In this document: in pieces, positions 25,905 to 43,329 of the stretch
How positions within the stretch are numbered: position 1 is the first letter of the stretch
Layout of the letters: the number at the start of each line of letters is the position of its first letter
Source of the DNA: Kibdelosporangium persicum
GTDB taxonomy: Bacteria; Actinomycetota; Actinomycetes; Mycobacteriales; Pseudonocardiaceae
DNA: 64,000 nt
Reading direction: 5' to 3'
NCBI RefSeq assembly: GCF_013280595.1
Contig: NZ_JAAATY010000013.1
Span: 62,001 to 126,000, forward strand
Translations under genes and position numbers: made by a program
The notes under the pieces: model-generated
Databases searched by the model: none
Seen by the model: only the letters and a program-made list of their open reading frames with translations
What the model was told of the DNA's origin: nothing

Positions 25905-25942
25905 GACAAATCCCCCTTGGGAAGGGAATGCAGGGTAAAGGT

Positions 25943-25956
25943 GGAAAGCGCTTTCC
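25943..25956. promoter_or_regulatory. perfect palindrome GGAAAGCGCTTTCC
   Basis: A 14-bp perfect palindrome with a central CG, just downstream of the predicted transcription start of the beta-helix gene. It looks like an operator of a different LacI-family or carbon-catabolite regulator, since its arms differ from the TGAWWCG sites. Confidence 0.65.
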
Positions 25957-25964
25957 GCGCACCC

Positions 25965-25994
25965 ACGGTAGTTGATACGTTTCAGTCGTGTCAA
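25965..25994 (-). promoter_or_regulatory. predicted promoter of the beta-helix gene
   Basis: On the minus strand a perfect TTGACA (25994-25989) and TACCGT (25970-25965) are 18 nt apart. The LacI-type operator occupies most of the spacer. Confidence 0.65.
25973..25984. promoter_or_regulatory. LacI-type operator in the beta-helix promoter
   Basis: TGATACGTTTCA, one of the five TGAWWCGTWTCA-like sites, lies between the -35 and -10 boxes of the beta-helix gene. A protein bound here would block RNA polymerase directly. Confidence 0.8.
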
Positions 25995-25997
25995 CAG

Positions 25998-26984
25998 TCA
26001 GTGACGGGTCGACTCCCGGACGACCAGCTCCGGCTTGAACACCACCTGCTGGTGCGCGTGATCGGCGGGGGAGTCGCACTCCTCGAACAGCAACTGGGCC
26101 GCTGTCCGTCCGATGTGGATTCTCGGTTGCCTGATCGACGTCAGCGGCACGGCGGCGTCCGCGGCGAACTCGATGTCGTCGTAACCGATCAGGGCGACGT
26201 CGTCAGGGACGCGCCGGCCGGTGCTGATGGCGGCCCGCAGGACACCAAGGGCGAGCAGGTCGTTGGCGCAGAACACCGCGTCCACGTCCGTGGTCTCGAA
26301 CAACCGGAGCGCGGCCTGGTAACCGAGACCGGCTTTGAGGGCGGCCGTTTCCGCCACTTCGACGGTCCGGCCTTGGGTGGCACGCCGCAGGCCGGTCAAC
26401 CGGTCGGCGCACTGTGGCAACGTCAGCGGCCCGGTGATGTACGCGATACGCTTGCGGCCCAACGACATCAGATGGGCTCCGGCCAGTTCGCCGCCCGCGA
26501 CGTCGTCGACCGCGACGGAACAGCAGTCCGCGCCGGGGATGGTTCGGTCGACCAGCACGGCCGGGGTTCCGCGCTCGCGCAGCGCCGTCAATCGCTCCGA
26601 GCCGCCCGCGACCGGTGTGATGAGCAAGCCGCGGACGCGCTGCTCCTCCAGTACCTGTAGGTACCAGTTCTCCCGGGATGCCTGCTCGTCGGAGTTGCAC
26701 AGCAGCACGGCATAGCCCTGTTGGACGGCGACGTCCTCGACGCCCTTGGCGACGTCCTGGAAGAACGGGTTCGCCATGTCCAGGACGAGCAGGCCGAGTG
26801 AGCGGCTGGCGCCCGCGCGCAGCTGCGCGGCTGACGAGTTGCGGACGAAGCCCAGTTCCGCGATCGCGGCCAGCACGAGTGCCCTGGTCGCGGGCGAGAC
26901 CTTCGCCGGCCGGTTGAGCACGTTGGACACCGTGCCGACCGACACGCCCGCCCGTACGGCGACATCCTTGATACTCGCGGCCAT
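25998..26984 (-). CDS. LacI-family repressor, probable rhamnose regulator
   Basis: A 328-residue regulator. The N-terminal helix-turn-helix (SIKDVAVRAGVSVGTVSNVL, residues 4-23) and hinge helix (SSAAQLRAG) are standard, followed by a type-1 periplasmic-binding fold that senses a sugar. It diverges from the rhamnose operon, and operators lie 5 bp before its own ATG, in front of the operon, in the beta-helix promoter and before the MFS/GH operon. Predicted action: repress these genes until L-rhamnose or a derivative is present, and repress itself. Most known bacterial rhamnose regulators are AraC-, DeoR- or LacI-type; this fits the LacI-type RhaR predicted in some bacteria. Confidence 0.88.
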   Translation of the reverse strand: MAASIKDVAVRAGVSVGTVSNVLNRPAKVSPATRALVLAAIAELGFVRNSSAAQLRAGASRSLGLLVLDMANPFFQDVAKGVEDVAVQQGYAVLLCNSDEQASRENWYLQVLEEQRVRGLLITPVAGGSERLTALRERGTPAVLVDRTIPGADCCSVAVDDVAGGELAGAHLMSLGRKRIAYITGPLTLPQCADRLTGLRRATQGRTVEVAETAALKAGLGYQAALRLFETTDVDAVFCANDLLALGVLRAAISTGRRVPDDVALIGYDDIEFAADAAVPLTSIRQPRIHIGRTAAQLLFEECDSPADHAHQQVVFKPELVVRESTRH

Positions 26985-27068: not shown

Positions 27069-27080
27069 TGAAACGTTTCA
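27069..27080. promoter_or_regulatory. LacI-type operator of the rhamnose operon
   Basis: TGAAACGTTTCA is a perfect 12-bp palindrome just downstream of the predicted transcription start and 13 bp before the rhaT start codon. It is the best match of the five related sites. Confidence 0.85.
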
Positions 27081-27093
27081 TCGAGGAGGCGTC

Positions 27094-28584
27094 GTGGCAC
27101 CGTCGCTCGAGCTGATCGGGGTGAGCAAGGCCTTCGGCGCGGTCCAGGCTCTCCGCGGCGTGTCGCTGGCCCTGCACGCGGGCGAGATCCATGCCCTGGC
27201 CGGTGAGAACGGGGCCGGGAAGTCCACAGTGGTCCGGATCATCGGCGGCGAGCACCAGCCGGACGAGGGTGAGGTCCGGCTGGACGGCGAGCCGGTCCGG
27301 TTCGGTGGTCCGCGCGACGCCCAGCACCGTGGCGTCGCGGTGATCCACCAGGAGCCGACCCGGTTCCCCGACCTCAACGTGGCCGAGAACGTCTTCATGG
27401 GCCGTCAGCCGCTGCGGAAAGGGCGACGGGTCGACCGCAGGGCGATGTACCGGCGGACGGCCGAGCTGTTCGAAACCCTGGGCGTACCGCTCGATCCGGC
27501 CCTGCCGACCCGTGGGTTGTCGATCGCGGACCAGCAGATCATCGAGATCGCCAAGGCGCTGGCCACCGAGGCCCGGATCATCGTGATGGACGAGCCGACG
27601 GCGGCATTGTCCAATGTGGAGGCCGAACGGCTGTTCCGCGTGGCCCGCACGCTCGCGGCGAACGGCGCGGCGCTGCTGTTCATCTCGCACCGGCTGGAGG
27701 AGATGTACTCGTTGTGCCAACGAGTCACCGTACTCCGGGACGGTTCACCGGTCACCAGTGAACGGATGACCGACATCGACCACGACACGCTGGTGCGCAG
27801 CATGGTCGGCCGGTCGGTCGAGCAGCTGTTCCCGAAGCGGGAGACCAAGGCCGGCGCCGAGGTGCTGACAGTGCGGGGACTGACCCAGCCGGGCGTGTTC
27901 CGCGATGTGTCCTTCGCTGTGCGGCAGGGCGAGATCGTGGGCCTGGCCGGTTTGGTGGGGTCGGGCCGTTCCGAGGTGGCACGGGCGATCTTCGGCATCG
28001 ACGACCGCGAGTCCGGGACGGTGACCGTCGCGGGACGCGTGCTGCCCAAGTCGAACCCGCGGGCGGCGATCGCGGCGGGCCTGGCGATGGTGCCGGAGGA
28101 CCGGCGGGAACAGGGCCTGATCCTCGAGTTGCCCATCGACCGCAACACGAGCCTGGCCCAGCTGGGCGCGGTCTCCCGGTGGGGCCTGGTCCGGTCCGGC
28201 CGGGAACGGTCGGTCGCCGCGGAGTGGGCCCGGCGGCTCGGCCTGCGGTTCGGCGGGCTGGGCGACCCGGCGGGCACCCTGTCCGGCGGGAACCAGCAGA
28301 AAGTGGTTCTCGGCAAGTGGCTGGCGACCAAGCCGGAGGTGCTGATCGTGGACGAGCCGACGCGGGGCATCGACATCGGCGCGAAGGTGGAGGTGCACGC
28401 GCTGTTGTCGGATCTCGCGGCCTCGGGGATGGCGGTGTTGATGATCTCGTCGGAGCTGCCGGAAGTGCTCGGCATGGCCGACCGGGTCCTGGTGATGCAC
28501 GAGGGCCGGATCGCCGCGGAGTTGTCGCGGACCGAGGCGAACGAGGAGGCCGTGATGCGAGCGGCGACGGGGAGTGCGGCATGA
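27094..28584 (+). CDS. rhaT: rhamnose ABC transporter ATPase
   Basis: A 496-residue tandem ABC ATPase of the CUT2 family. Domain 1 is canonical: Walker A GENGAGKST, Walker B IIVMDEPTAALS. Domain 2 has a degenerate Walker A (GLVGSGRSEVAR, no Lys) but an intact signature LSGGNQQKVVLGKW and Walker B LIVDEPTRGID; this asymmetry is normal for CUT2. The GTG at 27094 follows GAGGAGG. It is first in the rhamnose operon and energises RhaP/RhaQ. Symbol use follows the rhizobial rha ABC operon, where rhaT names the ATPase; it is unrelated to the E. coli rhamnose-proton symporter RhaT. Confidence 0.88.
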   Translation: MAPSLELIGVSKAFGAVQALRGVSLALHAGEIHALAGENGAGKSTVVRIIGGEHQPDEGEVRLDGEPVRFGGPRDAQHRGVAVIHQEPTRFPDLNVAENVFMGRQPLRKGRRVDRRAMYRRTAELFETLGVPLDPALPTRGLSIADQQIIEIAKALATEARIIVMDEPTAALSNVEAERLFRVARTLAANGAALLFISHRLEEMYSLCQRVTVLRDGSPVTSERMTDIDHDTLVRSMVGRSVEQLFPKRETKAGAEVLTVRGLTQPGVFRDVSFAVRQGEIVGLAGLVGSGRSEVARAIFGIDDRESGTVTVAGRVLPKSNPRAAIAAGLAMVPEDRREQGLILELPIDRNTSLAQLGAVSRWGLVRSGRERSVAAEWARRLGLRFGGLGDPAGTLSGGNQQKVVLGKWLATKPEVLIVDEPTRGIDIGAKVEVHALLSDLAASGMAVLMISSELPEVLGMADRVLVMHEGRIAAELSRTEANEEAVMRAATGSAA

Positions 28585-28724
28585 CGGCAGATGTCCACAA
28601 TGGAGTTAATGGAATGGCTACCGCATCGCCGGACGTGTTCGGCTGCGGCGTCGAGGCAGCGGATACCCGTGGTGAGCGCGGGTGCCGGGCTGTCGGCGAG
28701 GCGGCGAGGGGGCGTGCGGCGTGA
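28581..28724 (+). CDS. 47-codon ORF bridging rhaT and rhaP
   Basis: An open frame starts with the ATG of the ATGA that ends rhaT and finishes with the TGA of the GTGA that starts rhaP, so it is overlapped on both sides. The peptide begins MTADVHNGVNGMATASPDVF and has no recognisable domain. It may be a remnant of the original rhaP N-terminus cut off by a frameshift, a coupling ORF that carries ribosomes from rhaT to rhaP, or a real small protein. The otherwise tight operon has no other gap of this size (136 nt). Confidence 0.35.
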   Translation: MTADVHNGVNGMATASPDVFGCGVEAADTRGERGCRAVGEAARGRAA

Positions 28725-29713
28725 CGTCCTTACTCCGGAGCCGTGAGAGCGGAATCGTCATCGCGTTGGTGGCCGTCGTCGCCGTCACCGCCATCGTCAA
28801 CCCGGGCTTCCTGTCCGGCCAAGGCGTCCACGACCTCTTCCTGAACGCCTCGATCATCGCGCTCCTGGCCGCAGGTCAGTGCCTGCTCGTCATCACCCGC
28901 AACATCGACCTGTCGGTCGGGTCGGTGATGGGGCTGACCGCCTACATGAGCGGCCAGATGTTCCTGGGCAACCAGGGCATGCCGATGATCGTCGTGATCC
29001 TGGCCGGGATCGTGCTCGGTGCCGTGTGCGGCGCGATCAACGGCGCACTCGTGGCCATCGCGAAAGTCCCGGCCTTGGTCGTCACCCTGGGGACGCTGTA
29101 CGTCTTCCGCGGCCTGGACTACGCGTGGGCGTCGGCCACCGGCGTCCAGCAGGTCAACGCCTACCAGATGTCGCCGAGTTTCCTGGAGTTCGGCAGCGGG
29201 TCGGTCCTGGGCGTCCCGAACCTCACGCTGATCGCCGTCATCGTCGTCGCCGTGATCGCGTACTTACTGAAGAACTTCAGGTCGGGCCGAGAGCTCTACG
29301 CGATCGGCTCGAACCCGGACGCGGCCCGGCTGGCCGGTATCCCCACGGGCCGAAGGGTGTTCACCACCTTTGTCATCTCGGGTGGCCTGGTCGGCCTGGC
29401 CGGAGTCCTGCACGCCGCCTACTTCGGCACGATCAACGCCGCGGTCGGATCGGGCAAGGAACTCGCCGTGGTGGCCGCGGTCGTGGTCGGCGGCGTGGCG
29501 ATCTTCGGCGGGAGCGGGACGGTGCTCGGTGCCGCACTCGGTGCGTTGCTGCTCACCACGATCACCAGCGCGCTGCCGATCCTCGGCGTCCCGGCGTTCT
29601 GGCAGCGGGCGGTCGACGGCGCCGCGTTGCTGGTGGCGATCTCGTTGGACCGCACGGTGATGGTGCGGCTTGCCGCCCGGCTGCAACGGGAAAGGAACCG
29701 GGCCCGTGCGTGA
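28721..29713 (+). CDS. rhaP: rhamnose ABC transporter permease 1
   Basis: A 330-residue CUT2 permease with roughly eight to ten membrane segments. The signature loop is VITRNIDLSVGSVMGLTAYM. The GTG at 28721 has GAGGGGG upstream and is the first start that leaves only permease-like sequence. It overlaps rhaQ by 8 nt. With RhaQ it forms a heterodimeric channel, as in the rhizobial rhamnose transporter. Confidence 0.87.
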   Translation: MTSLLRSRESGIVIALVAVVAVTAIVNPGFLSGQGVHDLFLNASIIALLAAGQCLLVITRNIDLSVGSVMGLTAYMSGQMFLGNQGMPMIVVILAGIVLGAVCGAINGALVAIAKVPALVVTLGTLYVFRGLDYAWASATGVQQVNAYQMSPSFLEFGSGSVLGVPNLTLIAVIVVAVIAYLLKNFRSGRELYAIGSNPDAARLAGIPTGRRVFTTFVISGGLVGLAGVLHAAYFGTINAAVGSGKELAVVAAVVVGGVAIFGGSGTVLGAALGALLLTTITSALPILGVPAFWQRAVDGAALLVAISLDRTVMVRLAARLQRERNRARA

Positions 29714-30725
29714 CCGACTTCTCCGTTGGGAGACCATCCTTCTGGTGCTGTGCGTGCTCGTGCTGGCCTACGGCGCGATCAGCACGGACGGGTTCGCCGA
29801 AGCGGACAACATCAGCTTCCTGCTGCTGGACTACAGCGAAGTCGCCCTGCTGGCGTTCGCGTTGCTGCCGATCGTGCTCACCGGCGAGATCGACCTGTCG
29901 GTGGCGTCCGTGCTCGGCTTCTGCTCGGCGCTCACCGGCGCGTTGTGGAACGGCGGCATGCCGTTCGAGACGATCGTGCCGCTCGTCCTGGTCGCGGGCG
30001 TGGTCCTGGGTTTCATCAACGCCGTGCTCATCGTCCGGTTCGGACTGCCGTCGCTCGCGGTCACCATTGGCACGCTGGGCTTGTACCGGGGGCTGGCGTA
30101 CGTCGTCCTCGGCGACGGCGCGGTGACCGGCTTCCCGTCGACCTACCGGCCACTGGCCACGGCATCGATCGGATTCCTGCCGTACGTGACGATTCTGGTG
30201 ATCGTCATCGGAATCATCGCCATGGTGGTCGTGCACTACACGCCAGTCGGCAGGGCGCTGTACGCCATCGGGCTGGGCGAGCAGACGGCGCGGTTCTCCG
30301 GCATCCGGGTCGACCGGATCAAGATGTCGCTGTACCTCGTGTCCGGCGGGCTCGCCGCGTTGGCCTCGCTGGTCTTCACACTGCGCTACAACAGTGCTCG
30401 GGCCGACAACGGCAACGGCCTTGAGCTCGCCGTGGTGGCCGCGGTCCTGCTGGGCGGTGTCTCGATCTTCGGTGGCCGCGGCACGGTCTTCGGTGTCGCC
30501 ACCGCGGTCCTGCTGATGGCGGGCCTGCGCAACGTGTTGTTCCTGGGGGACGTCAGCAACGAGATCCAGAACGTGATCACCGGACTGCTGCTGATCGTCT
30601 CCGTGCTCGTCCCGGCCTCGGTGCGACTGCTCGCCCGCCGCCGCAGAGAGCGCCCCGCCGCTGAACCCACCCTCGACGAGGAGGAACCATGTCCCACACC
30701 AACCGTGTCCTCACAGCGCTCTTAG
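29706..30725 (+). CDS. rhaQ: rhamnose ABC transporter permease 2
   Basis: A 339-residue CUT2 permease, paralogous to RhaP. Its loop reads VLTGEIDLSVASVLGFCSAL. The start GTG 29706 overlaps rhaP by 8 nt. The C-terminus is an Arg/Glu-rich tail (ARRRRERPAAEP) encoded over the first 37 nt of rhaS, an unusually long overlap for this operon; the tail may exist mainly because the rhaS start lies inside it. Confidence 0.87.
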   Translation: MRDRLLRWETILLVLCVLVLAYGAISTDGFAEADNISFLLLDYSEVALLAFALLPIVLTGEIDLSVASVLGFCSALTGALWNGGMPFETIVPLVLVAGVVLGFINAVLIVRFGLPSLAVTIGTLGLYRGLAYVVLGDGAVTGFPSTYRPLATASIGFLPYVTILVIVIGIIAMVVVHYTPVGRALYAIGLGEQTARFSGIRVDRIKMSLYLVSGGLAALASLVFTLRYNSARADNGNGLELAVVAAVLLGGVSIFGGRGTVFGVATAVLLMAGLRNVLFLGDVSNEIQNVITGLLLIVSVLVPASVRLLARRRRERPAAEPTLDEEEPCPTPTVSSQRS

Positions 30726-31753
30726 CGGTCGCGCTCGTCGCCGGGTGCGGCAGCACGACCAAGGGCTCGGACCCCGGCGCCGCCGGCGGCGGCACCGGCA
30801 CCAGCCGCGCCGCGGACCCGAACGCGCCGATCAAACAGGGCCTGAAGATCGCGTTCCTGCCCAAGGAGATCGACAACCCCTACGAGGTGATCGTCGACAA
30901 CGGCGGGATCGCCGCGGTCAAGGAGCTCGGTGGTGAGGGCAAGGAGGTCGGGCCGTCCGACGCGTCGGCGTCCTCGCAGGTCTCCTACATCAACACGCTG
31001 ATCCAGCAGCGGCAGGACGCGATCGTGATCGCCGCCAACGACCCGAACGCGGTGGCGCCCGCGCTGAAGGACGCCATGGGCAAGGGCATCCCGGTGGTGA
31101 CCTACGACTCCGACGCCGCGCCCGACGCCCGGCAGGTCTTCGTCAACCAGGCCGACTCCGAGGAGATCGGCCGGTCCCAGGTCAGGCTGATCTCGCAGCA
31201 GATCGGCGGCAGCGGCAAGATCGCCATCCTGTCGGCCACGCCGAACGCCACCAACCAGAACACCTGGATCCAGTTCATGAAGGACGAGCTGACCAAGCCG
31301 GAGTACAAGGGCATCGAGCTGGTCAAGATCGCCTACGGCGACGACGACGACCAGAAGTCCTTCCAGGAGGCGCAGGCACTGCTGCAGTCCATTCCGGACC
31401 TGAAGGGCATCATCTCGCCGACCACCGTCGGCATCTCCGCGGCGGCCCGGTACATGTCCACGTCGCCGTACAAGGGCAAGGTCAAGCTGACCGGTCTCGG
31501 CACGCCGAACCAGATGCGGCAGTTCGTCAAGGACGGCACGGTCACCGAGTTCGCGCTGTGGGACCCGGCGGAGCTGGGCTACCTGGCGGGCTACGCCGCC
31601 GCGGCGCTGGCGTCCGGCCAGATCAGCGGCGCCGAGGGCGAGACGCTCAAGGCCGGCAAGCTGGGTGAGCGCAGGATCGGCAAGAACGGCGAGATCATCC
31701 TCGGCCCGCCGACCGTGTTCAACGCCGGCAATATCGACAAGTACAACTTCTGA
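30689..31753 (+). CDS. rhaS: rhamnose-binding lipoprotein
   Basis: A 354-residue periplasmic-binding-protein type 1 lipoprotein with signal and lipobox LVAGCGS (Cys at about residue 20). The core KIAFLPKEIDNPYEVIVDNG and FVNQADSEEIGRSQVRLISQ match rhamnose-specific CUT2 binding proteins. The ATG at 30689 follows GAGGAGGAACC. Its TGA overlaps the rhaM start (TGATG), tying transporter and mutarotase together. Confidence 0.88.
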   Translation: MSHTNRVLTALLAVALVAGCGSTTKGSDPGAAGGGTGTSRAADPNAPIKQGLKIAFLPKEIDNPYEVIVDNGGIAAVKELGGEGKEVGPSDASASSQVSYINTLIQQRQDAIVIAANDPNAVAPALKDAMGKGIPVVTYDSDAAPDARQVFVNQADSEEIGRSQVRLISQQIGGSGKIAILSATPNATNQNTWIQFMKDELTKPEYKGIELVKIAYGDDDDQKSFQEAQALLQSIPDLKGIISPTTVGISAAARYMSTSPYKGKVKLTGLGTPNQMRQFVKDGTVTEFALWDPAELGYLAGYAAAALASGQISGAEGETLKAGKLGERRIGKNGEIILGPPTVFNAGNIDKYNF

Positions 31754-32070
31754 TGCGGCGGATCTGCTTCCTGTTGAAGGTCCGGCCCGGCAGGCTGGAG
31801 GAGTACCGGCGGCGGCACGCGGCGGTGTGGCCGGAGATGCTCGCCGCCCTGCGGGAGACGGGCTGGCACAACTACTCGTTGTTCCTGCGCCCGGACGGCC
31901 TGCTGGTCGGCTACTTCGAGACCGACGACCTGGAGGCCGCACTGGCCGGAATGGCCGCCACCGGCGTCAACCGCCGGTGGCAGGCCGAGATGGCGCCCTT
32001 CTTCGAAGGCCTGGACGGACAGCCGGATGAAGGGATCATCCCGCTCGAAGAGGTGTTCCACCTTGACTGA
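31753..32070 (+). CDS. rhaM: L-rhamnose mutarotase
   Basis: A 105-residue enzyme of the normal RhaM length. It interconverts alpha- and beta-L-rhamnopyranose after uptake. Motifs: RPGRLEEYRRRHAAVWPEML at the N-terminus with the catalytic His, WHNYSLFLRPDGLLVGYFE, and the family hallmark NRRWQAEMAPFFE. Its position between the binding protein and the isomerase is typical of rhamnose operons and anchors the assignment of the whole locus. Confidence 0.95.
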   Translation: MRRICFLLKVRPGRLEEYRRRHAAVWPEMLAALRETGWHNYSLFLRPDGLLVGYFETDDLEAALAGMAATGVNRRWQAEMAPFFEGLDGQPDEGIIPLEEVFHLD

Positions 32071-32080
32071 GGAGGACAGC

Positions 32081-33247
32081 ATGCCTGACCGTTCGGCGGT
32101 CCTGGCGGCATTGCGTGCCCAGCACATCGAGACCCCGTCGTGGGCGTACGGCAACTCGGGCACCAGGTTCAAGGTCTTCGCGCAGGAAGGCGTTCCGCGC
32201 GACGCGTACGAGAAGATCGACGACGCGGCGACCGTGCACCGGTTCACCGGCGTGGCGCCCACAGTCGCGCTGCACATCCCGTGGGACATGGTCGACGACT
32301 ACGCGGATCTGGCGGCGCACGCGCGTAACCAGGGCATCGGGATCGGCGCGATCAACCCGAACGTCTTCCAGGAGGACGACTACCGGCTGGGCAGCGTGTG
32401 CAACCCGGACCCGGCCGTCCGCCGCAAGGCCCTCGACCACCTGCTCGAATGCGTGGACATCATGGATGCCACGGGTTCCCAGGACCTGTCGTTGTGGTTC
32501 GCCGACGGCACCAACTACCCCGGGCAGGACTCGATCGCGGGCCGGCAGGAGCGCCTGGCCGAGGCGTTGCGCGCGGTCTACGACCGGCTCGGCGCGGACC
32601 AGCGGATGTTGCTGGAGTACAAGCTCTTCGAGCCCGCCTTCTACACGATGGACCTGCCGGACTGGGGAACCAGTTACGCGCACTGCGTGGATCTCGGCCG
32701 GCGGGCCAAGGTCCTGGTCGACACCGGGCACCACGCGCCCGGCACCAACATCGAGTTCATCGTGGCGTTCCTGCTGCACCGGGCCAAGCTCGGCGGGTTC
32801 CACTTCAACTCCCGGTTCTACGCCGACGACGACCTCATGGTCGGCGCGGCCGATCCGTTCCAGCTGTTCCGGATCATGGCCGAGATCGTGCTGGGCGGCG
32901 GCCTGGACAAGGCGTCCGGGGTGGCGTTCATGCTCGACCAGTGCCACAACATCGAGCCCAAGGTCCAGGCCCTGATCCGCTCGGTGCTCAACGTCCAGGA
33001 GGCCACGGCCAAGGCGCTGCTCGTGGACGCGGAGGCGTTGCGCAAGGCCCAGGCCGAAGGCGATGTGCTCGGCGCGAACGCCGTGCTGATGGACGCGTAC
33101 AACACCGATGTGCGGCCGATGCTCGCCGAGTTGAGGGAGGACATGGGCATCGACCCGGATCCCGTCGGGGCGTACCGCCGGTCCGGGCACTTCGACAAGA
33201 TCCGTGCGGAACGGGCGGATGGTGCCGCGGCAGGGTGGGGAGCGTGA
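32081..33247 (+). CDS. rhaI: L-rhamnose isomerase (RhaI type)
   Basis: A 388-residue cytoplasmic TIM-barrel isomerase converting L-rhamnose to L-rhamnulose. It belongs to the Pseudomonas stutzeri-like RhaI class rather than E. coli RhaA. Metal-ligand regions are visible: LLEYKLFEPAFY (Glu), LVDTGHHAPGTN (Asp, His), KLGGFHFNSRFYADDDL (His, Asp). The ATG at 32081 has GAGGAGGA upstream. It is followed by the secreted propeller gene after 1 nt. Confidence 0.93.
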   Translation: MPDRSAVLAALRAQHIETPSWAYGNSGTRFKVFAQEGVPRDAYEKIDDAATVHRFTGVAPTVALHIPWDMVDDYADLAAHARNQGIGIGAINPNVFQEDDYRLGSVCNPDPAVRRKALDHLLECVDIMDATGSQDLSLWFADGTNYPGQDSIAGRQERLAEALRAVYDRLGADQRMLLEYKLFEPAFYTMDLPDWGTSYAHCVDLGRRAKVLVDTGHHAPGTNIEFIVAFLLHRAKLGGFHFNSRFYADDDLMVGAADPFQLFRIMAEIVLGGGLDKASGVAFMLDQCHNIEPKVQALIRSVLNVQEATAKALLVDAEALRKAQAEGDVLGANAVLMDAYNTDVRPMLAELREDMGIDPDPVGAYRRSGHFDKIRAERADGAAAGWGA

Positions 33248-33248
33248 C

Positions 33249-34619
33249 ATGCGCTTACGAGCCCTGCTTGTCGCCTGCCTCGTCCTGTTCAGCACACCAG
33301 CCGCCGCGGTCGCCGCACCGACGGTTTCGCTGTTGCGGGACACGGAACTCGATCCCACGGCGCTGTACTTCGTCTCGTACGACGGCCTGGTGAACAACGA
33401 GTCCTACCAACAGGACGCGATCCTCAGCTATGCGGGATACCAGTACGCGACTTGGTACACCGCAGACCGCAGTGCCGTCATCGCGCGGCGGGCGCTGCCG
33501 AGTGGCGCCTGGCAAAAGATCGTACTGCCGCACAAGCTGAGCGCGAACGACTCGCACAACGTGATCTCGCTGGGCATCTCGCCGACCGACGGGCGCCTGC
33601 ACGTCGCCATGGACACGCACAACACGCCGGTGTTCTACGTCAAGTCCGAGCCCGGCCTGGTGACGTCGCCGATGTGGTCCGCGGCCAGGTTCGGTCCGGT
33701 GCAGCGAACGCTGGACGGCGTGGACCTCGGCGCGATCACGTACCCGCAGTTCGTGGTCACGCCGGAACGACGCCTCCAGCTGAGCTACCGGACGGGCGGC
33801 TCCGGCAACGGAACCAACGAACTCGCCGAGTACGACGGAACGGAGTGGCGCAAGCTGGGCAAGTGGTCGTCCGCGACCGGGTCGTGGACCGCACCCAACG
33901 GTGTCACGAGCACGACACGCAACATGTACCTGCACGGGCTCACGTATGATCACAAAGGACGGTTGCACGCCGCGTTCACGTGGCGCGAAGGCAACACCGG
34001 CGTGCTGTGCAACTCAGGCGGCCTGACCAACCACGACACCGGGTACGTCTACAGCGACGACCGTGGCCGGACGTGGCGCAACAACACCGGAAACGCCGTC
34101 GCCACACCCGTGGCCGTGTCCCCGAACCTGGTGGTGGATCCGCTCGGTCCCAACCACGGCTTGATGAACCAGGAAAGCCAGGCGGTCGACTCCACCGGCA
34201 CCCCGCACGTGATCATCAGCTACGTGCCGGGCCGGTTCACCCAGTGCGTCACCAGCTACGCGGCGGACCGCAACCGCTGGGCCCGTTCGTTCCACCTGAC
34301 GCGCAAGGCCGACGGCTCGTGGACCAAGCGTGAGATCCCGATCCCGCCGAACGCCACCGGCCGGACCCGGATCGTCTTCGACCGCAACGACAACGCGTAC
34401 CTCGTGATGCCGTACGGACGGATCGTCACGGCGTCGAAGGCCAGCGGCTGGACCGACTGGACGCTGGTGTTCGACCGGCCGGGCATGAACGTCTTCGGCG
34501 AGGTGACCGTCGACTACTCCAGAGTCGCCAGTGAAGGCGTGCTGTCCATGTTCTACCAACAGCGATCCGGCGGAACCACGCCGTCGCCGATCCGGGTCGC
34601 CGACTTCCGTCTGGGATAA
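33249..34619 (+). CDS. secreted BNR_4 beta-propeller, candidate rhamnose-releasing polysaccharide lyase
   Basis: A 456-residue exported protein with a Sec signal (residues 1-22, ending AVAA). The rest looks like a seven-bladed BNR_4 propeller, the fold of lyase families PL24, PL25 and probably PL27. The motif DSHNVISLGI...DGRLHVAMDTHN gives His103 and His124, and ITYPQF...LSYRTGGSGNG gives Tyr165 and Arg181. From memory, PL24/PL25 ulvan lyases use a His pair about 20 apart and a Tyr-Arg pair 16 apart, the same layout. Ulvan (rhamnose/uronate) and Rha-GlcA ends of arabinogalactan are known substrates of these folds. Being inside a rhamnose catabolic operon points to release of rhamnose or rhamnosyl units outside the cell. 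Substrate and lyase activity are inference. Confidence 0.8.
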   Translation: MRLRALLVACLVLFSTPAAAVAAPTVSLLRDTELDPTALYFVSYDGLVNNESYQQDAILSYAGYQYATWYTADRSAVIARRALPSGAWQKIVLPHKLSANDSHNVISLGISPTDGRLHVAMDTHNTPVFYVKSEPGLVTSPMWSAARFGPVQRTLDGVDLGAITYPQFVVTPERRLQLSYRTGGSGNGTNELAEYDGTEWRKLGKWSSATGSWTAPNGVTSTTRNMYLHGLTYDHKGRLHAAFTWREGNTGVLCNSGGLTNHDTGYVYSDDRGRTWRNNTGNAVATPVAVSPNLVVDPLGPNHGLMNQESQAVDSTGTPHVIISYVPGRFTQCVTSYAADRNRWARSFHLTRKADGSWTKREIPIPPNATGRTRIVFDRNDNAYLVMPYGRIVTASKASGWTDWTLVFDRPGMNVFGEVTVDYSRVASEGVLSMFYQQRSGGTTPSPIRVADFRLG

Positions 34620-34628
34620 GGAGAAATC

Positions 34629-36650
34629 GTGACCACACCGGTGACCGACCTGCTCAATCGGGCGCACGAGCTCGGGGCGGACCGGCGCAACACCAACTAC
34701 GCGGGCGGCAACGCGTCGGCGAAGGGACTCGCGCCCGACCCGGTGAGCGGCAAGGACGTCGAACTGATGTGGGTGAAGGGGTCCGGCGGTGACCTCGGCA
34801 CGCTCACCGAGGCCGGGCTGGCGGTGCTGCGGCTGGACCGGCTGCGCTCGCTGGTGGACGTCTATCCCGGTGAGGACCGGGAAGACGAGATGGTCGCCGC
34901 GTTCGACTACTGCCTGCACGGCAAAGGCGGCGCCGCGCCCAGCATCGACACCGCGATGCACGGCCTGCTCGACGCGTCCCATGTGGACCATCTGCACCCG
35001 GACTCCGGGATCGCGCTGGCCACGGCGGTCGACGGCGAGGAGCTGACCGCCAAGGTCTTCGGCGGCAGGGTCGGCTGGGTGCCGTGGCGGCGCCCGGGAT
35101 TCCAGCTCGGGCTGGACATCGCCGAGCTCAAGCGGGCCAACCCGGACATGATCGGCTGCGTCCTGGGTGGCCACGGCATCACGGCGTGGGGCGACACGAG
35201 CGAGCAGTGCCAGGCCAACTCGCTGGAGATCATCCGGACGGCCGAGCGGTACCTGGCCGAGCACGGCAAATCCGACCCGTTCGGTGCCGAACTGCCCGGT
35301 TACGGCGCCTTGCCGCAGGACGAGCGGAGGGCCAAGGCCGCCCGGCTGTTCCCGGTGCTGCGCGGGCTCGCGTCCACCGACGTCCGGCAGGTCGGTCACT
35401 TCACCGACAGCCCCGAGGTGCTGGAGTTCCTGTCCCGCGCCGAACACCCGCGGCTGGCCGCGCTGGGCACGTCCTGCCCGGATCACTTCCTGCGCACGAA
35501 AGTCGCGCCACTGGTGGTCGACCTGCCCGGCACGGCGTCGGTCGACGAGATCATCGCGCGGGTCACCGAGTTGCACGCGTCCTATCGCGACGACTACGCG
35601 GCCTACTACCAGCGCCACGTGACACCGGACTCGCCGCCGATGCGCGGCGCGGACCCGGCGATCGTGCTCGTGCCGGGCGTGGGCATGTTCAGCTTCGGCC
35701 GTGACCCGCGGACAGCGCGGGTGGCGGGGGAGTTCTACGTCAACGCGATCAACGTGATGCGCGGGGCCGAGTCGGTCTCCCGCTACGAACCCATCCCGGA
35801 GTCGGAGAAGTTCCGGATCGAGTACTGGGAGCTGGAAGAGGCCAAGCTGCGCCGGATGCCGGAACCCAAGCCGCTGGCGACCCGGATCGCCCTGGTCACC
35901 GGCGGTGGCTCGGGGATCGGCAGGGCGATCGCGCACCGGCTCGCCGCCGAGGGAGCCGCGGTGGTCGTCGCCGACGTCAACGCCGAGGCGGCGTCCACAG
36001 TTGCCGGTGAGATCGGGGGCGTCGCGGTCACCGCGAACGTGACCGACGAGGACGCGATCGCCGAAGCGGTGAGCGCCGCGTGCCTCGCGTACGGCGGGCT
36101 CGACCTGGTGGTCAACAACGCCGGGCTCTCGGTCTCGAAACCGTTGCTGGACACGACGATCGAGGACTGGGACCGTCAGCACGACGTGATGGCCCGCGGC
36201 TCCTTCCTGATCTCACGCGAGGCCGCACGCGTGATGATCGCGCAGAAGATGGGCGGCGACATCGTCTACATCGCCAGCAAGAACGCGATCTTCGCGGGTC
36301 CGAACAACGTGGCGTACGGCTCGGCGAAGGCCGACCAGGCGCACCAGGTCCGGCTGCTGGCGGCCGAGCTCGGCGAGCACGGAATCCGCGTCAACGGCGT
36401 CAATCCGGACGGTGTCGTACGCGGTTCGGGCATCTTCGCGTCCGGCTGGGGCGCCCAGCGGGCTGCCGTGTACGGCGTGCCCGAGGAGAAGCTCGGCGAG
36501 TTCTACGCCCAGCGGACGCTGCTCAAGCGGGAGGTGCTGCCCGAACACGTCGCCAACGCGGTGTTCGTGCTGACCACCGCCGAACTCTCGCACACCACCG
36601 GCCTCTTGGTCCCGGTCGACGCCGGCGTGGCCGCGGCGTTCCTGCGCTGA
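34629..36650 (+). CDS. rhaEW: bifunctional rhamnulose-1-phosphate aldolase / L-lactaldehyde dehydrogenase
   Basis: A 673-residue fusion. Residues 1-410 form a class II zinc aldolase: the metal site is around SHVDHLHPDSGIALA (near 117-131) and LGGHGITAWG. It splits L-rhamnulose 1-phosphate into DHAP and L-lactaldehyde. Residues from about 418 form an SDR: TRIALVTGGGSGIGRAIAHR binds NAD+, NNAGLS is the structural motif, and YGSAKA carries the Tyr-x3-Lys pair. It oxidises lactaldehyde to lactate. This matches the RhaD/alcohol dehydrogenase (RhaEW, YuxG) family in length and order. GTG start with AAGGAGA. Confidence 0.93.
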   Translation: MTTPVTDLLNRAHELGADRRNTNYAGGNASAKGLAPDPVSGKDVELMWVKGSGGDLGTLTEAGLAVLRLDRLRSLVDVYPGEDREDEMVAAFDYCLHGKGGAAPSIDTAMHGLLDASHVDHLHPDSGIALATAVDGEELTAKVFGGRVGWVPWRRPGFQLGLDIAELKRANPDMIGCVLGGHGITAWGDTSEQCQANSLEIIRTAERYLAEHGKSDPFGAELPGYGALPQDERRAKAARLFPVLRGLASTDVRQVGHFTDSPEVLEFLSRAEHPRLAALGTSCPDHFLRTKVAPLVVDLPGTASVDEIIARVTELHASYRDDYAAYYQRHVTPDSPPMRGADPAIVLVPGVGMFSFGRDPRTARVAGEFYVNAINVMRGAESVSRYEPIPESEKFRIEYWELEEAKLRRMPEPKPLATRIALVTGGGSGIGRAIAHRLAAEGAAVVVADVNAEAASTVAGEIGGVAVTANVTDEDAIAEAVSAACLAYGGLDLVVNNAGLSVSKPLLDTTIEDWDRQHDVMARGSFLISREAARVMIAQKMGGDIVYIASKNAIFAGPNNVAYGSAKADQAHQVRLLAAELGEHGIRVNGVNPDGVVRGSGIFASGWGAQRAAVYGVPEEKLGEFYAQRTLLKREVLPEHVANAVFVLTTAELSHTTGLLVPVDAGVAAAFLR

Positions 36651-36662
36651 CGGGAGGGAATC

Positions 36663-38063
36663 ATGGACCGCACACCGAAGATCGGACTGGTCGCGGGCGG
36701 GCTGGGCGCCTACTGGCCCCAGTTTCCCGGCCTGCTGCCCACTTTGCGGCAGTCCGCCGGGTATGTGAGCGAACGCATCTCCGGCTACGACGCCGAAATC
36801 GTCGACGTCGGGTTCATCTCCAACGCCCAGGAAGGCGCCGCTGCCGCGGAAAAGCTCAGGGCGGCCGGATGCGACCTGATCGTCGGGTTCCTCACGACGT
36901 ACATGACGGCGACCATGCTCATGCCGATCGCGCAGCGGTCCGGCGCGCCCGTGCTGCTGATCAACCTGCAACCGACCGAGTCGATGGACCACGCCAGTGT
37001 CGACACTGGACAGTGGCTGGCGTACTGCGGTGCCTGTCCGTTGCCCGAGATGGCCAACGCGTTCACCCGGGCCGGCGTCGAGTTCCGCAGCGTTTCCGGC
37101 TATCTGCGGGATGAGCGGGCGTGGGCCAGGATCGGCAACTGGATCAAGGCCGCCGGCGTCCGCAAGGTCCTGCGCTCCGGGCGGCACGGGCTGATGGGCC
37201 ACCTCTATCCCGGCATGTACGACGTCTCCACGGACCTCACCATGGTCAGCGCCCAGTTCGGCGGCCACGTCGAGGTGCTGGAGTACGACGACCTGCGGGT
37301 GCGGGTGGAGAAGGTGACCGACGCCGAGGTGGCCGCGAAGATCGCCGAGGCCGAGTCGGTCTTCGAGGTGACCGAGTCGGTGAACGCCGACGACTTCGCC
37401 TGGGGTGCCCGCGTGGCGGTCGGGCTGGACCGCCTGGTCGCGGACTTCGACCTGGACAGCCTGGCGTACTACCACCGAGGCCTGGACGGCGAGCAGCACG
37501 AACGGCTCGCCGCCGGGATGATCCTCGGCGCGAGCCTGCTGACCGCGCGGGGCGTCCCGGCGGCAGGCGAGTTCGAGCTGCGCACCAGCATGGCCATGCT
37601 GATCATGGACGTGCTGGGCGCGGGCGGCTCGTTCACCGAGTTCCAGGCCTTGGACTTCGACCGGGGACACGTCGAGATGGGCCACGACGGTCCCGGGCAC
37701 CTCGCGATCAGCGCGGGGAAACCGTTGCTGCGCGGGCTGGGCGTGTTCCACGGCAAGCGTGGCTGGGGAGTGTCGGTGGAGTTCGACGTCGCGCACGGGC
37801 CGGTGACCCTGCTCGGGGTCGGGCAGACCCGCGACGGCCGGTACACCCTGGTGACCGCCGAGGGAACCGTGGTCGACGGCCCGCACATGAAGATCGGCAA
37901 CACCACGAGCCGCGTGGACTTCGGCCGTGATCCCGGCGAATGGACCGACGACTGGTCGGCCAGCGGGGTCGGGCACCACTGGGCGCTGGGGACCGGCCAC
38001 CAGGTCGCCGCGCTGCGGGCGGTGGCGAGCCTGATGGACCTGCCGCTGGTCGAGGTCGCTTGA
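36663..38063 (+). CDS. L-fucose/L-arabinose isomerase-like protein
   Basis: A 466-residue cytoplasmic protein with the FucI/AraA-type N-terminal domain (IGLVAGGLGAYWPQFPGLL, then CDLIVGFLTTYMTATMLMPI) and a C-terminal beta-domain (VLLGVGQTRDGRY). Mid-protein ASLLTARGVPAAGEFELRTS, LDFDRGHVEMGHDGPGHLAI and HGKRGWGVSVEFD resemble metal-binding segments of this superfamily. It sits between the aldolase and kinase genes, ending in a TGATG overlap with rhaB. The operon already has an L-rhamnose isomerase, so this one either isomerises a second deoxy-sugar or pentose released from the same polysaccharide, or has another role. The assignment to a specific sugar is open. Confidence 0.75.
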   Translation: MDRTPKIGLVAGGLGAYWPQFPGLLPTLRQSAGYVSERISGYDAEIVDVGFISNAQEGAAAAEKLRAAGCDLIVGFLTTYMTATMLMPIAQRSGAPVLLINLQPTESMDHASVDTGQWLAYCGACPLPEMANAFTRAGVEFRSVSGYLRDERAWARIGNWIKAAGVRKVLRSGRHGLMGHLYPGMYDVSTDLTMVSAQFGGHVEVLEYDDLRVRVEKVTDAEVAAKIAEAESVFEVTESVNADDFAWGARVAVGLDRLVADFDLDSLAYYHRGLDGEQHERLAAGMILGASLLTARGVPAAGEFELRTSMAMLIMDVLGAGGSFTEFQALDFDRGHVEMGHDGPGHLAISAGKPLLRGLGVFHGKRGWGVSVEFDVAHGPVTLLGVGQTRDGRYTLVTAEGTVVDGPHMKIGNTTSRVDFGRDPGEWTDDWSASGVGHHWALGTGHQVAALRAVASLMDLPLVEVA

Positions 38064-39433
38064 TGCGTTCGTTCGTCGCGGTCGATCTCGGGGCGAGCAG
38101 TGGCCGGGTCATGCTCGGCCACGCCGGCTCCGGGCCGATCGAACTCGAGGAGCTGCACCGGTTCGCCATCGGCCCGCAGTCCCGGCCCGGCGGCGGGCTG
38201 CGCTGGGACATCGCGAAGATCCACGCGGAGGCCGTCCACGGCATCCGGGCGGCCGCGCCCGCCGATCCGGTGTCGATCGGCCTGGACTCGTGGGCGGTGG
38301 ACTACGGGCTGGTCGACGCGGACGGCAAGCTTGACGGTGACGTGCGCTGTTACCGTGATCCCCGGACACAGGGAGTTCGCTCCGGCATCGACGACCGGAC
38401 CCTGTACGGCATCAACGGCCTGCAGCACCTGCCGTTCAACACGATCTACCAGTTGCTCACCGAGCCGCCGGAACGGCTCGCCGATCACACCATGCTGCTC
38501 GTCCCGGACCTGCTCGGCTACCTGCTGACCGGCGTGATGGGCGCGGAGGTCACCAACGCGTCCACGACCGGCCTGCTCTCCGCGTCCACCCGGTCGTGGT
38601 CCACGGAATTGCTTGCCCGCAGCGGCATCCCCGCGAGCCTCCTGCCGCCGCTGCGGCAACCCGGCGAGCACATCGGCCTGTACGAGTCGACACCTGTGGT
38701 GGCGGTCGCCTCACACGACACAGCGTCGGCGGTGGCGGCCATTCCCGCCACCACCTCGAAGTTCGGCTACATCTCGTGCGGCACGTGGTCGCTCGCCGGG
38801 TTGCGCCTCGACGCGCCGGTGCTCACCGAGCAGGCCAGGCTCGCCAACTTCACCAACGAGTCCGGTGTGGACGGAACAACCCGGTTCCTGCGCAACACCA
38901 TGGGACTGTGGCTGCTCAGCGAATCACTGCGGGTCTGGAACGCCGAGCTGGCCCCGCTGCTGTCGGCCGCCGCCGCGCAGCCCGCGTTCGCCGCCGTGAT
39001 CGACCCGAACGACGACGCCTTCCTGGCACCGGGCGACATTCCCGCTCGTATCGCCGGCCAGTGCCGCCGGACCGGGCAACCGCCACCGGCCACCCCGGCC
39101 GCGTTCGTCCGGACGATCCTGGAATCCCTGGCCCTGGCCCACGCCGCGACCCTGCAGACGGCGGCCGCCTTGGCCGGCCGGGACCTGGACGTGGTCCATC
39201 TGGTCGGCGGCGGTGCGCGTAACGAACTGCTGTGCCAGTTCACCGCGGACGCGTGCGGCCTGCCCGTGCTGGCCGGGCCGGTGGAGGCCAGCGCGACCGG
39301 CAACGTGCTGGTCCAGGCCCGGGCAGCCGGAGTGCACGCGGAGCCCCCGCCGCCCTTCAGCCGTTATGAGCCGAGCGGCGACCGCACCCGATGGCTGGCA
39401 GCGGCCCGCCGAATCGCCCTGCCCCTCTCGTGA
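38063..39433 (+). CDS. rhaB: L-rhamnulokinase
   Basis: A 456-residue FGGY kinase that phosphorylates L-rhamnulose at O1 for the RhaEW aldolase. The N-terminus SFVAVDLGASSGRVMLGHAG and IGLDSWAVDYGLVDADG are diagnostic for RhaB, as is LPFNTIYQLL. SCGTWSLAGLRLDAPVLTE and VHLVGGGARNELLCQFTADA complete the ATP site. The start ATG overlaps the previous stop (TGATG). The stop codon lies in the left arm of the terminator hairpin, so the final codons (LPLS) are part of that repeat element. Confidence 0.93.
   Translation: MRSFVAVDLGASSGRVMLGHAGSGPIELEELHRFAIGPQSRPGGGLRWDIAKIHAEAVHGIRAAAPADPVSIGLDSWAVDYGLVDADGKLDGDVRCYRDPRTQGVRSGIDDRTLYGINGLQHLPFNTIYQLLTEPPERLADHTMLLVPDLLGYLLTGVMGAEVTNASTTGLLSASTRSWSTELLARSGIPASLLPPLRQPGEHIGLYESTPVVAVASHDTASAVAAIPATTSKFGYISCGTWSLAGLRLDAPVLTEQARLANFTNESGVDGTTRFLRNTMGLWLLSESLRVWNAELAPLLSAAAAQPAFAAVIDPNDDAFLAPGDIPARIAGQCRRTGQPPPATPAAFVRTILESLALAHAATLQTAAALAGRDLDVVHLVGGGARNELLCQFTADACGLPVLAGPVEASATGNVLVQARAAGVHAEPPPPFSRYEPSGDRTRWLAAARRIALPLS

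Positions 39434-41295: not shown

Positions 41296-43329
<2,034 letters not shown>

What the first reader, a model, noticed from the sequence alone, without database searches (positions are those of the whole stretch)
33249..34619. Secreted BNR_4 propeller with a lyase-like His/His/Tyr/Arg set inside a rhamnose catabolic operon
Seen: signal peptide, BNR_4-like repeats, His103/His124 (21 apart) and Tyr165/Arg181 (16 apart), and a 1-nt gap after rhaI. Known: PL24/PL25 ulvan lyases and the PL27 Rha-GlcA lyase are propellers acting on rhamnose/uronate linkages; the residue spacing agrees with my memory of PL24/PL25. Inference: this enzyme cuts Rha-uronate bonds outside the cell and the operon consumes the rhamnose. 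A lyase translated within the core rha operon, rather than in a polysaccharide locus, is unusual and could define a new subfamily.
Basis: partly seen in the sequence, partly recalled or inferred. Interest (0 to 1): 0.8.

Follow-up and report, generated by a model that had tools for sequence, protein, structure and literature searches.

The report
Rhamnose-freeing lyase inside rhamnose operon
This soil bacterium probably secretes an enzyme that snips rhamnose caps off plant arabinogalactan sugars, and it keeps that gene in the same operon that imports and burns the rhamnose, a pairing that recurs in several groups of actinomycetes.

Summary
In detail: 456 aa, signal-peptide-like N-terminus, BNR_4 at 2e-87, His103/His124, Tyr165/Arg181, 1-nt gap after rhaI. 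The nearest solved relative, by sequence and by fold, is FoRham1, founder of PL42 (L-rhamnose-alpha-1,4-D-glucuronate lyase). PL24/PL25 are more distant, and PL27 is not a propeller. All 13 active-site side chains taken from the FoRham1 papers are present; over 81 sequences ten are invariant, two are 80/81, one is variable. The posterior GH145 hydrolase histidine is Tyr61, as in FoRham1.

Placement in a rha locus is no one-off: 24 of 80 named loci. Rha-linked genes are not one clade (p-AU 7e-5), so this is no new subfamily. The rha-operon palindrome TGAAACGTTTCA (27069-27080) also precedes 8 of 56 genes outside rha loci, against at most 1 for 119 permuted palindromes. Nineteen of those 56 sit beside a relative of endo-beta-1,6-galactanase.

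Best reading: an exo-lyase freeing rhamnose from arabinogalactan Rha-GlcA caps, under rhamnose control. A new member of a known kind, with a regulon link not seen in the papers searched. Activity is untested.

The parts
33249..34619 (+). PL42-type L-rhamnose-alpha-1,4-D-glucuronate lyase gene (456 aa, probably secreted, beta-propeller)
   Evidence: Pfam BNR_4 2.2e-87; best PDB sequence match FoRham1 8e-36; AF2 mean pLDDT 88.5, best Foldseek hit 7esk TM 0.79/0.85
33249..33317 (+). signal-peptide-like segment, residues 1-23 (cleavage near AVAA|P)
   Evidence: direct reading and hydrophobicity/AxA heuristic; not run through SignalP
33429..33431 (+). Tyr61 codon: position of the posterior GH145 catalytic His48 (His in 20 of 81 sequences)
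   Evidence: phmmer alignment to BT3686 5muk and FoRham1, counts
33549..33557 (+). Asp101-Ser-His103: equivalents of FoRham1 Asp83 and His85 (base/acid)
   Evidence: alignments; both invariant in 81 of 81
33618..33620 (+). His124 = FoRham1 His105
   Evidence: invariant in 81 of 81
33741..33743 (+). Tyr165 = FoRham1 Tyr150
   Evidence: invariant in 81 of 81
33789..33791 (+). Arg181 = FoRham1 Arg166 (neutraliser of the glucuronate carboxylate)
   Evidence: invariant in 81 of 81
33927..33929 (+). Tyr227 = FoRham1 Tyr202
   Evidence: invariant in 81 of 81
33984..33986 (+). Arg246 = FoRham1 Arg220 (GlcA O3)
   Evidence: invariant in 81 of 81
34167..34172 (+). Asn307-Gln308 = FoRham1 Asn275/Gln276 (rhamnose subsite)
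   Evidence: 81 and 80 of 81
34362..34364 (+). Arg372 = FoRham1 Arg331 (rhamnose O2/O3)
   Evidence: invariant in 81 of 81
34500..34502 (+). Glu418 = FoRham1 Glu381 (holds Arg331)
   Evidence: invariant in 81 of 81
27069..27080 (.). palindrome TGAAACGTTTCA, probable operator of the LacI-type regulator
   Evidence: one exact site in the window; two exact places in the 10.35-Mb genome against one for the reversed control pattern; the core AAACGTTT is in 19 of 19 lacI-rhaT regions compared
25998..26984 (-). LacI-family regulator, divergent (probable RhaR)
   Evidence: LacI-family NCBIfam models match, none above its cut-off; conserved next to rhaT in relatives
27094..28584 (+). rhamnose ABC transporter ATP-binding protein (RhaT)
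   Evidence: reading of the translation and conserved operon position; no family scan run on it
28682..30725 (+). two rhamnose ABC permease genes (overlapping ORFs 28682-29713 and 29670-30725)
   Evidence: reading of the translations and conserved position; no family scan run on them
30689..31753 (+). rhamnose-binding protein RhaS
   Evidence: TIGR02637 above cut-off
31753..32070 (+). L-rhamnose mutarotase RhaM
   Evidence: PF05336 above cut-off; TIGR02625 below cut-off
32072..33247 (+). L-rhamnose isomerase RhaI
   Evidence: TIGR02635 above cut-off
34629..36650 (+). bifunctional rhamnulose-1-P aldolase / short-chain dehydrogenase (RhaD, called RhaEW in PMC3870299)
   Evidence: TIGR02632 above cut-off
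36663..38063 (+). fucose/arabinose-isomerase-like protein of unknown role, found in rha operons with and without PL42
   Evidence: no family above cut-off
38060..39433 (+). rhamnulokinase RhaB
   Evidence: TIGR02627, 408 bits, below cut-off 528, best hit

Best explanation
The gene encodes a secreted, exo-acting PL42 lyase. On the anterior face of the propeller, Arg181 (helped by His124 and Tyr165) neutralises the carboxylate of a glucuronate that carries L-rhamnose on O4. His103, tuned by Asp101 and His124, takes H5 and passes the proton to the glycosidic oxygen. The products are free L-rhamnose and a 4,5-unsaturated glucuronyl end. [quoted passage not shown] RhaS and its ABC permease import the rhamnose, and RhaM, RhaI, RhaB and RhaD degrade it. 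A LacI-type repressor at TGAAACGTTTCA probably controls the whole operon, so a little released rhamnose would raise both the harvesting enzyme and its pathway. Shown here: homology, predicted fold, residues, operon, operator pattern. Inferred: activity, substrate, secretion, regulation.
For: Best PDB sequence matches are the FoRham1 entries (E 8e-36), then ex-GH145 Bacteroides enzymes (4e-23), then PL24 (4e-9). AF2 model mean pLDDT 88.5; Foldseek ranks FoRham1 first (E 1.6e-29, TM 0.79/0.85), then GH145 and PL24 entries, then PL25. 13 of 13 FoRham1 active-site residues are present. Rhamnose-binding protein, mutarotase, isomerase and aldolase pass curated cut-offs. PL42 in rha loci: 24 of 80 named loci, 9 of 55 family regions plus the window, 6 of 6 PL42 genomes among 296. 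The operator is also upstream of PL42 genes outside rha loci, 8 of 56. A relative of endo-beta-1,6-galactanase lies within 600 bp of PL42 in 19 of 56 non-rha loci; the one tested against the PDB matches 24td at 4e-39, and the window's genome has a 52%-identical homologue.
Against: Identity to FoRham1 is only 26%, and at their lyase site the Bacteroides PL42 enzymes cleave wine AGP but not gum arabic (PMC8406133), so the exact substrate may differ. No GH88/GH105 was found in the genome, so the unsaturated cap may stay on. Of 7 other same-genus genomes in the family sample, 4 have no PL42 match, and three of these have rhaI-rhaD-rhaB. 56 of 80 homologous loci are not linked to rha genes within the DNA held. 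The operator is a generic LacI-type palindrome, and its second place in the genome is not at a PL42 or rha gene that I recognised. No activity, expression or secretion data.
Confidence: 0.8

Rival explanations
1. An endo-acting ulvan lyase of PL24/PL25 type cutting Rha3S-GlcA chains.
For: The His/His and Tyr/Arg spacing is shared: LOR_107 His146/His167, PLSV_3936 His123/His143 and Tyr188/Arg204 (PMC8377490). PL24 and PL25 are found by fold, and PL24 by sequence.
Against: FoRham1 scores far better by sequence and fold. The FoRham1 rhamnose subsite (Asn307, Gln308, Arg372, Glu418) is conserved; whether ulvan lyases also keep it was not tested. The operon uses free rhamnose, which an endo-lyase would not give.
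Confidence: 0.06
2. A retaining alpha-L-rhamnosidase working at the posterior GH145 site.
For: BT3686 has such a second site with His48 (PMC8406133), and the only NCBIfam match is AlphRhmnaseBT3686 (119.6 bits).
Against: The His48 position is Tyr61 here, as in FoRham1; enzymes lacking that His showed no rhamnosidase activity on gum arabic AGP (PMC8406133). The NCBIfam score is far below its cut-off of 700.
Confidence: 0.04
3. A PL42 lyase with the same chemistry but a different natural substrate (microbial or algal Rha-GlcA exopolysaccharide, or sulfated AGP), not plant AGP caps.
For: The lyase sites of Bacteroides PL42 enzymes reject gum arabic and accept wine AGP (PMC8406133). Tyr53 (FoRham1 Tyr26) is Phe in 71 of 81 sequences, though not in this one.
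Against: Relatives of endo-beta-1,6-galactanase sit beside PL42 in 19 of 56 non-rha loci, one is in this genome, and all 13 FoRham1 residues are kept here.
Confidence: 0.08
4. A non-catalytic sugar-binding propeller (lectin or sialidase-like).
For: BNR propellers include lectins and sialidases, which appear lower in the fold list.
Against: Catalytic residues invariant in 81 of 81 sequences; the lectins and sialidases listed align with TM below 0.5 by query length.
Confidence: 0.02

Closest known systems
PL42, FoRham1 of Fusarium oxysporum (PDB 7ESK-7ESN; PMC8377490, PMC10951650)
   Same: BNR_4 propeller, anterior site with all 13 residues compared, posterior Tyr
   Different: 26% identity over the structural alignment; fungal
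ex-GH145, now PL42, Bacteroides enzymes such as BT3686 and BACCELL_00856 (PMC8406133)
   Same: fold and anterior His/His/Tyr/Arg; BACCELL_00856 also lacks posterior His48
   Different: about 21% identity; BT3686 has a second, posterior hydrolase site
PL24 (LOR_107, Uly1) and PL25 (PLSV_3936) ulvan lyases
   Same: propeller fold, related catalytic residues and spacing
   Different: LOR_107 and PLSV_3936 are reported as endo-acting (PMC8377490); weaker sequence and fold match
PL27 (BT0263)
   Same: same reaction, Rha-GlcA elimination
   Different: unrelated fold, beta-sandwich plus (alpha/alpha)6 barrel (PMC8377490)
Actinomycetales RhaR (LacI-type) regulons (PMC3870299)
   Same: LacI-type regulator, rhamnose ABC transporter and RhaEW; putative alpha-rhamnosidases ramA/rhmA in several
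   Different: the main text holds no 'BNR' and in the parts read names no such lyase; figures and supplements were not seen

Membership tests
PL42 | BNR_4 seven-bladed propeller | tested here: met
   PF15892 2.2e-87; model best matches FoRham1; the blades were not counted
PL42 | closest, among characterised families with solved structures, to FoRham1/ex-GH145 | tested here: met
PL42 | anterior Asp/His/His/Tyr/Arg plus Tyr202 and Arg220 equivalents | tested here: met
   all present, invariant in 81 of 81 sequences
PL42 | rhamnose subsite Tyr26, Asn275, Gln276, Arg331 (with Glu381) | tested here: met
   Y53, N307, Q308, R372, E418; Y53 is Phe in 71 of 81 sequences
PL42 | release of Rha and unsaturated GlcA from Rha-alpha-1,4-GlcA | not testable with these tools
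   needs an assay
PL42 | CAZy/dbCAN family assignment | not testable with these tools
   no dbCAN library on hand
GH145-type posterior alpha-rhamnosidase | posterior His48 | tested here: not met
   Tyr61
PL24/PL25 | nearest to ulvan lyases by sequence or fold | tested here: not met
   PL24 E 4e-9, PL25 not in the sequence list up to E 10; behind FoRham1 by fold
PL27 | beta-sandwich plus (alpha/alpha)6 barrel | tested here: not met
   a beta-rich model matching propellers is predicted
new rha-operon subfamily | rha-linked sequences form one clade | tested here: not met
   p-AU 7.3e-5, at least 4 changes forced by starred branches

The most novel reading that the evidence does not exclude
Actinomycete PL42 enzymes form a natural series in which a second, posterior hydrolase site is switched on and off. 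The residue at the GH145 nucleophile position is Tyr in 57, His in 20, Phe in 3 and Glu in 1 of 81 sequences, with 16 changes of His/not-His on the tree, at least 12 forced. That ties for second among 62 comparable columns, while ten lyase residues never change. The window enzyme (Tyr) is the lyase-only form, and its 80-84% identical K. banguiense counterpart (His, also just after rhaI) would be a two-site enzyme. Neutral drift at an unused surface position is the simpler reading and is not excluded.
Probability: 0.15. Interest if true: 0.65.

Novelty: new member of a known kind. Interest (0 to 1): 0.42.

Why it matters
In the papers read, PL42 is characterised from one fungus and a few Bacteroidota. 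A recurrent tie to rhamnose loci in actinomycetes is independent support for its physiological product (free rhamnose) and names bacterial candidates for gum arabic and AGP tools. It also suggests, as a guess, a cap-skimming habit in which soil bacteria take the rhamnose cap and leave the rest of the chain.

Tried and rejected
PL27 as a propeller relative: rejected from PMC8377490. Ulvan lyase: outranked. The isomerase-like gene at 36663-38063 as an enzyme for the unsaturated uronate product: rejected, since it is present in rha operons without PL42 (L173-L176, L178, L184) and missing in some with it (L043, L074). A rha-specific subfamily: rejected. Downstream GH88/GH105: none found in the genome; the control rang in 3 of 14 genomes. 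GH79 (PF16862): none found, but no control rang, so it says nothing. The second BNR_4 protein of the genome (L002) aligns with Asp/His/His/Tyr/Arg/Tyr and the Arg372 position, but not with Asn307, Gln308, Arg246 or Ser185, and its PDB matches are a lectin and PL25, not PL42: not a second copy. The secreted beta-helix protein beside lacI has no match at 1e-8 in 154 other regions.

Dropped or reassigned rows: the script flagged 25 of 80 loci; L113 has only transporter genes more than 6 kb away, so I moved it to 'not linked' (24 of 80) before building the trees. In one search, L071 (transporter genes only) was not counted. Of the matches I did not fetch five short fragments (in G005, G158, G187 and two in G088), and some fetched ones are partial (L085, L087). 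Several contigs are short, so 'not linked' is a lower bound on linkage. L033-L087 and L089-L168 partly cover the same genomes and are not independent. Searches list only part of their genomes without a match, and only part of its matches. A quicker tree (with FoRham1) gave 5 changes of rha linkage, 3 forced, against 7 and 4 in the careful one; I had seen the quick tree before the one-clade test, but the groups came from gene context. Only A1 (the window and 49 of 80 loci) was used for the fold.

Full report
What is there. It lies inside an all-plus-strand run from rhaT (27094) to rhaB (39433), divergent from a LacI-type regulator. RhaS, RhaI and the bifunctional aldolase/dehydrogenase pass their NCBIfam cut-offs, RhaM passes its Pfam cut-off, and RhaB and the LacI protein have good matches below cut-off. 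The ATPase and permeases were named from reading and position, without a family scan. Third-position GC is 0.89 against 0.93 for rhaI and rhaD, and dN/dS against three near relatives is 0.10-0.12, so this looks like a working gene.

What family. BNR_4 is the Pfam family (2.2e-87). Against PDB sequences the best matches are the FoRham1 entries (8e-36), then ex-GH145 Bacteroides enzymes (4e-23), then PL24 ulvan lyases (4e-9); PL25 is not among the 13 sequences listed up to E 10. An AlphaFold2 model on 50 sequences (mean pLDDT 88.5) gives much the same order by fold: FoRham1 (TM 0.79/0.85), three GH145 entries, PL24 entries with BT3686 among them, PL25, and far below them lectins and sialidases. 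Parts 1-4 of 7 of PMC8377490 say that FoRham1 founded PL42 by renaming GH145, and that PL27 has another fold.

Active site. From PMC8377490 and passages of PMC10951650, FoRham1 uses Asp83, His85 (base/acid), His105, Tyr150, Arg166 (neutraliser), Ser170, Tyr202 and Arg220 around GlcA, and Tyr26, Asn275, Gln276, Arg331 and Glu381 around Rha. Read off the phmmer alignment and a MAFFT alignment, the window protein has D101, H103, H124, Y165, R181, S185, Y227, R246, Y53, N307, Q308, R372 and E418: 13 of 13. Over 81 sequences (window plus the 80 loci), ten are invariant, S185 and Q308 are in 80, and Y53 is Tyr in 10 and Phe in 71. The GH145 posterior nucleophile His48 falls on Tyr61; FoRham1 has Tyr34 there. 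Passages of PMC8406133 report that the anterior site of Bacteroides members is a lyase and that members without His48 lack rhamnosidase activity on gum arabic AGP. The abstract of PMC13169297 supports the histidine mechanism by simulation.

Context elsewhere. In 80 named loci (298 relatives were found and the best 80 kept), PL42 is in a rha locus in 24: Kibdelosporangium (2), a record labelled Rhodococcus (1), Actinophytocola (2), Prauserella (1), Saccharomonospora (1), Actinomadura (3), a Thermomonosporaceae MAG (1) and Streptomyces (13) (names). The slot is after rhaI in all but Streptomyces, where it is after rhaM; one further Streptomyces locus (L120) is not linked. In the family sample, 53 of 249 genomes have a match; of 55 regions fetched, 9 plus the window have the gene next to rhaI. 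Full rha operons without it exist (L173-L176, L178). Of 7 other same-genus genomes, 3 have PL42 and 4 do not; three of the four were fetched and have a rhaI-rhaD-rhaB set. In a phylum sample, 6 of 296 genomes have PL42; all six are among the 25 of 296 with RhaI at E 1e-100 or better, and by the coordinates in the two calls the genes lie within 6 kb of each other in each. Five of the six are one genus, so these are few independent events. On a tree of 81, rha linkage needs 7 changes, at least 4 forced by starred branches, and one clade is rejected (p-AU 7.3e-5). Linkage was therefore gained or lost repeatedly; the count cannot tell which.

Regulation. The core AAACGTTT occurs in all 19 lacI-rhaT regions compared, the window's included. 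In the window the full TGAAACGTTTCA is at 27069-27080. It is exact at two places in the genome, against one for the reversed control pattern, so it is rare but not enriched; the second place is near genes that I did not recognise as rhamnose-related. In the window from 400 bp before to 60 bp after the start of the 56 non-rha-linked PL42 genes, the motif with up to one mismatch occurs in 8 loci (4 exact, all Saccharothrix, at -69 to -76; 3 Actinopolyspora at -93; 1 Prauserella with two sites), against 0.28 sites expected from the rest of the loci and at most 1 locus for 119 permuted palindromes. Close relatives inflate the count. It still suggests that PL42 can belong to the rhamnose regulon when it is not in the operon. 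Many LacI-family proteins read similar palindromes (recalled), so this is pattern evidence only.

Substrate. Of the 56 loci not linked to rha genes, 19 have a relative of one GH30-type enzyme within 600 bp of PL42: 14 are at least 68% identical to the query from L108 and 5 are about 30%. The L108 protein matches the solved secreted endo-beta-1,6-galactanase 24td at 4e-39; the others were not searched. The window's own genome encodes a 52% identical protein. Beta-1,6-galactan with Rha-GlcA caps is the AGP side chain (PMC8377490), so AGP is the best guess. No GH88/GH105 was found in the genome, so the unsaturated cap left behind may not be used.

Print. The listings showed no paper that by title or abstract describes PL42 in rha operons; most listed papers were not opened. 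PMC9120177 (passages) lists PL42 among secreted Lentzea enzymes. PMC3870299 (sections 14 and 16 and passages) describes RhaR regulons of Actinomycetales with putative alpha-rhamnosidases, and its main text does not hold 'BNR'; its figures and supplements were not seen, and subscription papers and databases are not covered.

Verdict. An ordinary and convincing PL42 enzyme in a context that is recurrent and informative. The least ordinary observation is posterior position 61, which changes between His and not-His 16 times in 81 sequences (tied second of 62 comparable columns, mean 8.3; shuffled labels reach as few changes in 55 of 500), while ten lyase residues never change.

Noticed in passing
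residue 61 of the PL42 family, window 33429-33431: Position of the GH145 posterior catalytic His: Tyr 57, His 20, Phe 3, Glu 1 of 81 sequences, with 16 changes on the tree.
   Followed up: partly
L092 (JOAA01000006.1): Record named Rhodococcus rhodnii NRRL B-16535 carries a rha locus with the layout of Kibdelosporangium aridum (L089) and much the same identities to the window; its PL42 is the sister of the K. aridum one. Probably a misnamed strain.
   Followed up: no
L002:1324-2643 (G000:C9): Second BNR_4 protein in the genome with Asp/His/His/Tyr/Arg at the aligned sites but without several PL42 substrate residues; weak PDB matches to lectin PLL2 and a PL25 ulvan lyase.
   Followed up: partly
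24756-25994 (-): Secreted-looking protein with a weak beta-helix match (below cut-off) beside lacI; likely start 25904, with an operator-like site (TGATACGTTTCA, 25973-25984) just upstream; no match in 154 compared regions or the PDB.
   Followed up: partly
36663-38063: Fucose/arabinose-isomerase-like protein in actinomycete rha operons, no assigned role; weak similarity to a sulfoquinovose isomerase model.
   Followed up: partly
41296-43329: A 677-aa EF-G-like GTPase, above the TIGR00484 EF-G cut-off; whether it is a second EF-G copy was not checked.
   Followed up: no
L102, L107, L108 and other Lentzea loci: PL42 lies beside GH30-type, GH2 and PL11 genes, a candidate locus for AGP and rhamnogalacturonan.
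   Followed up: partly
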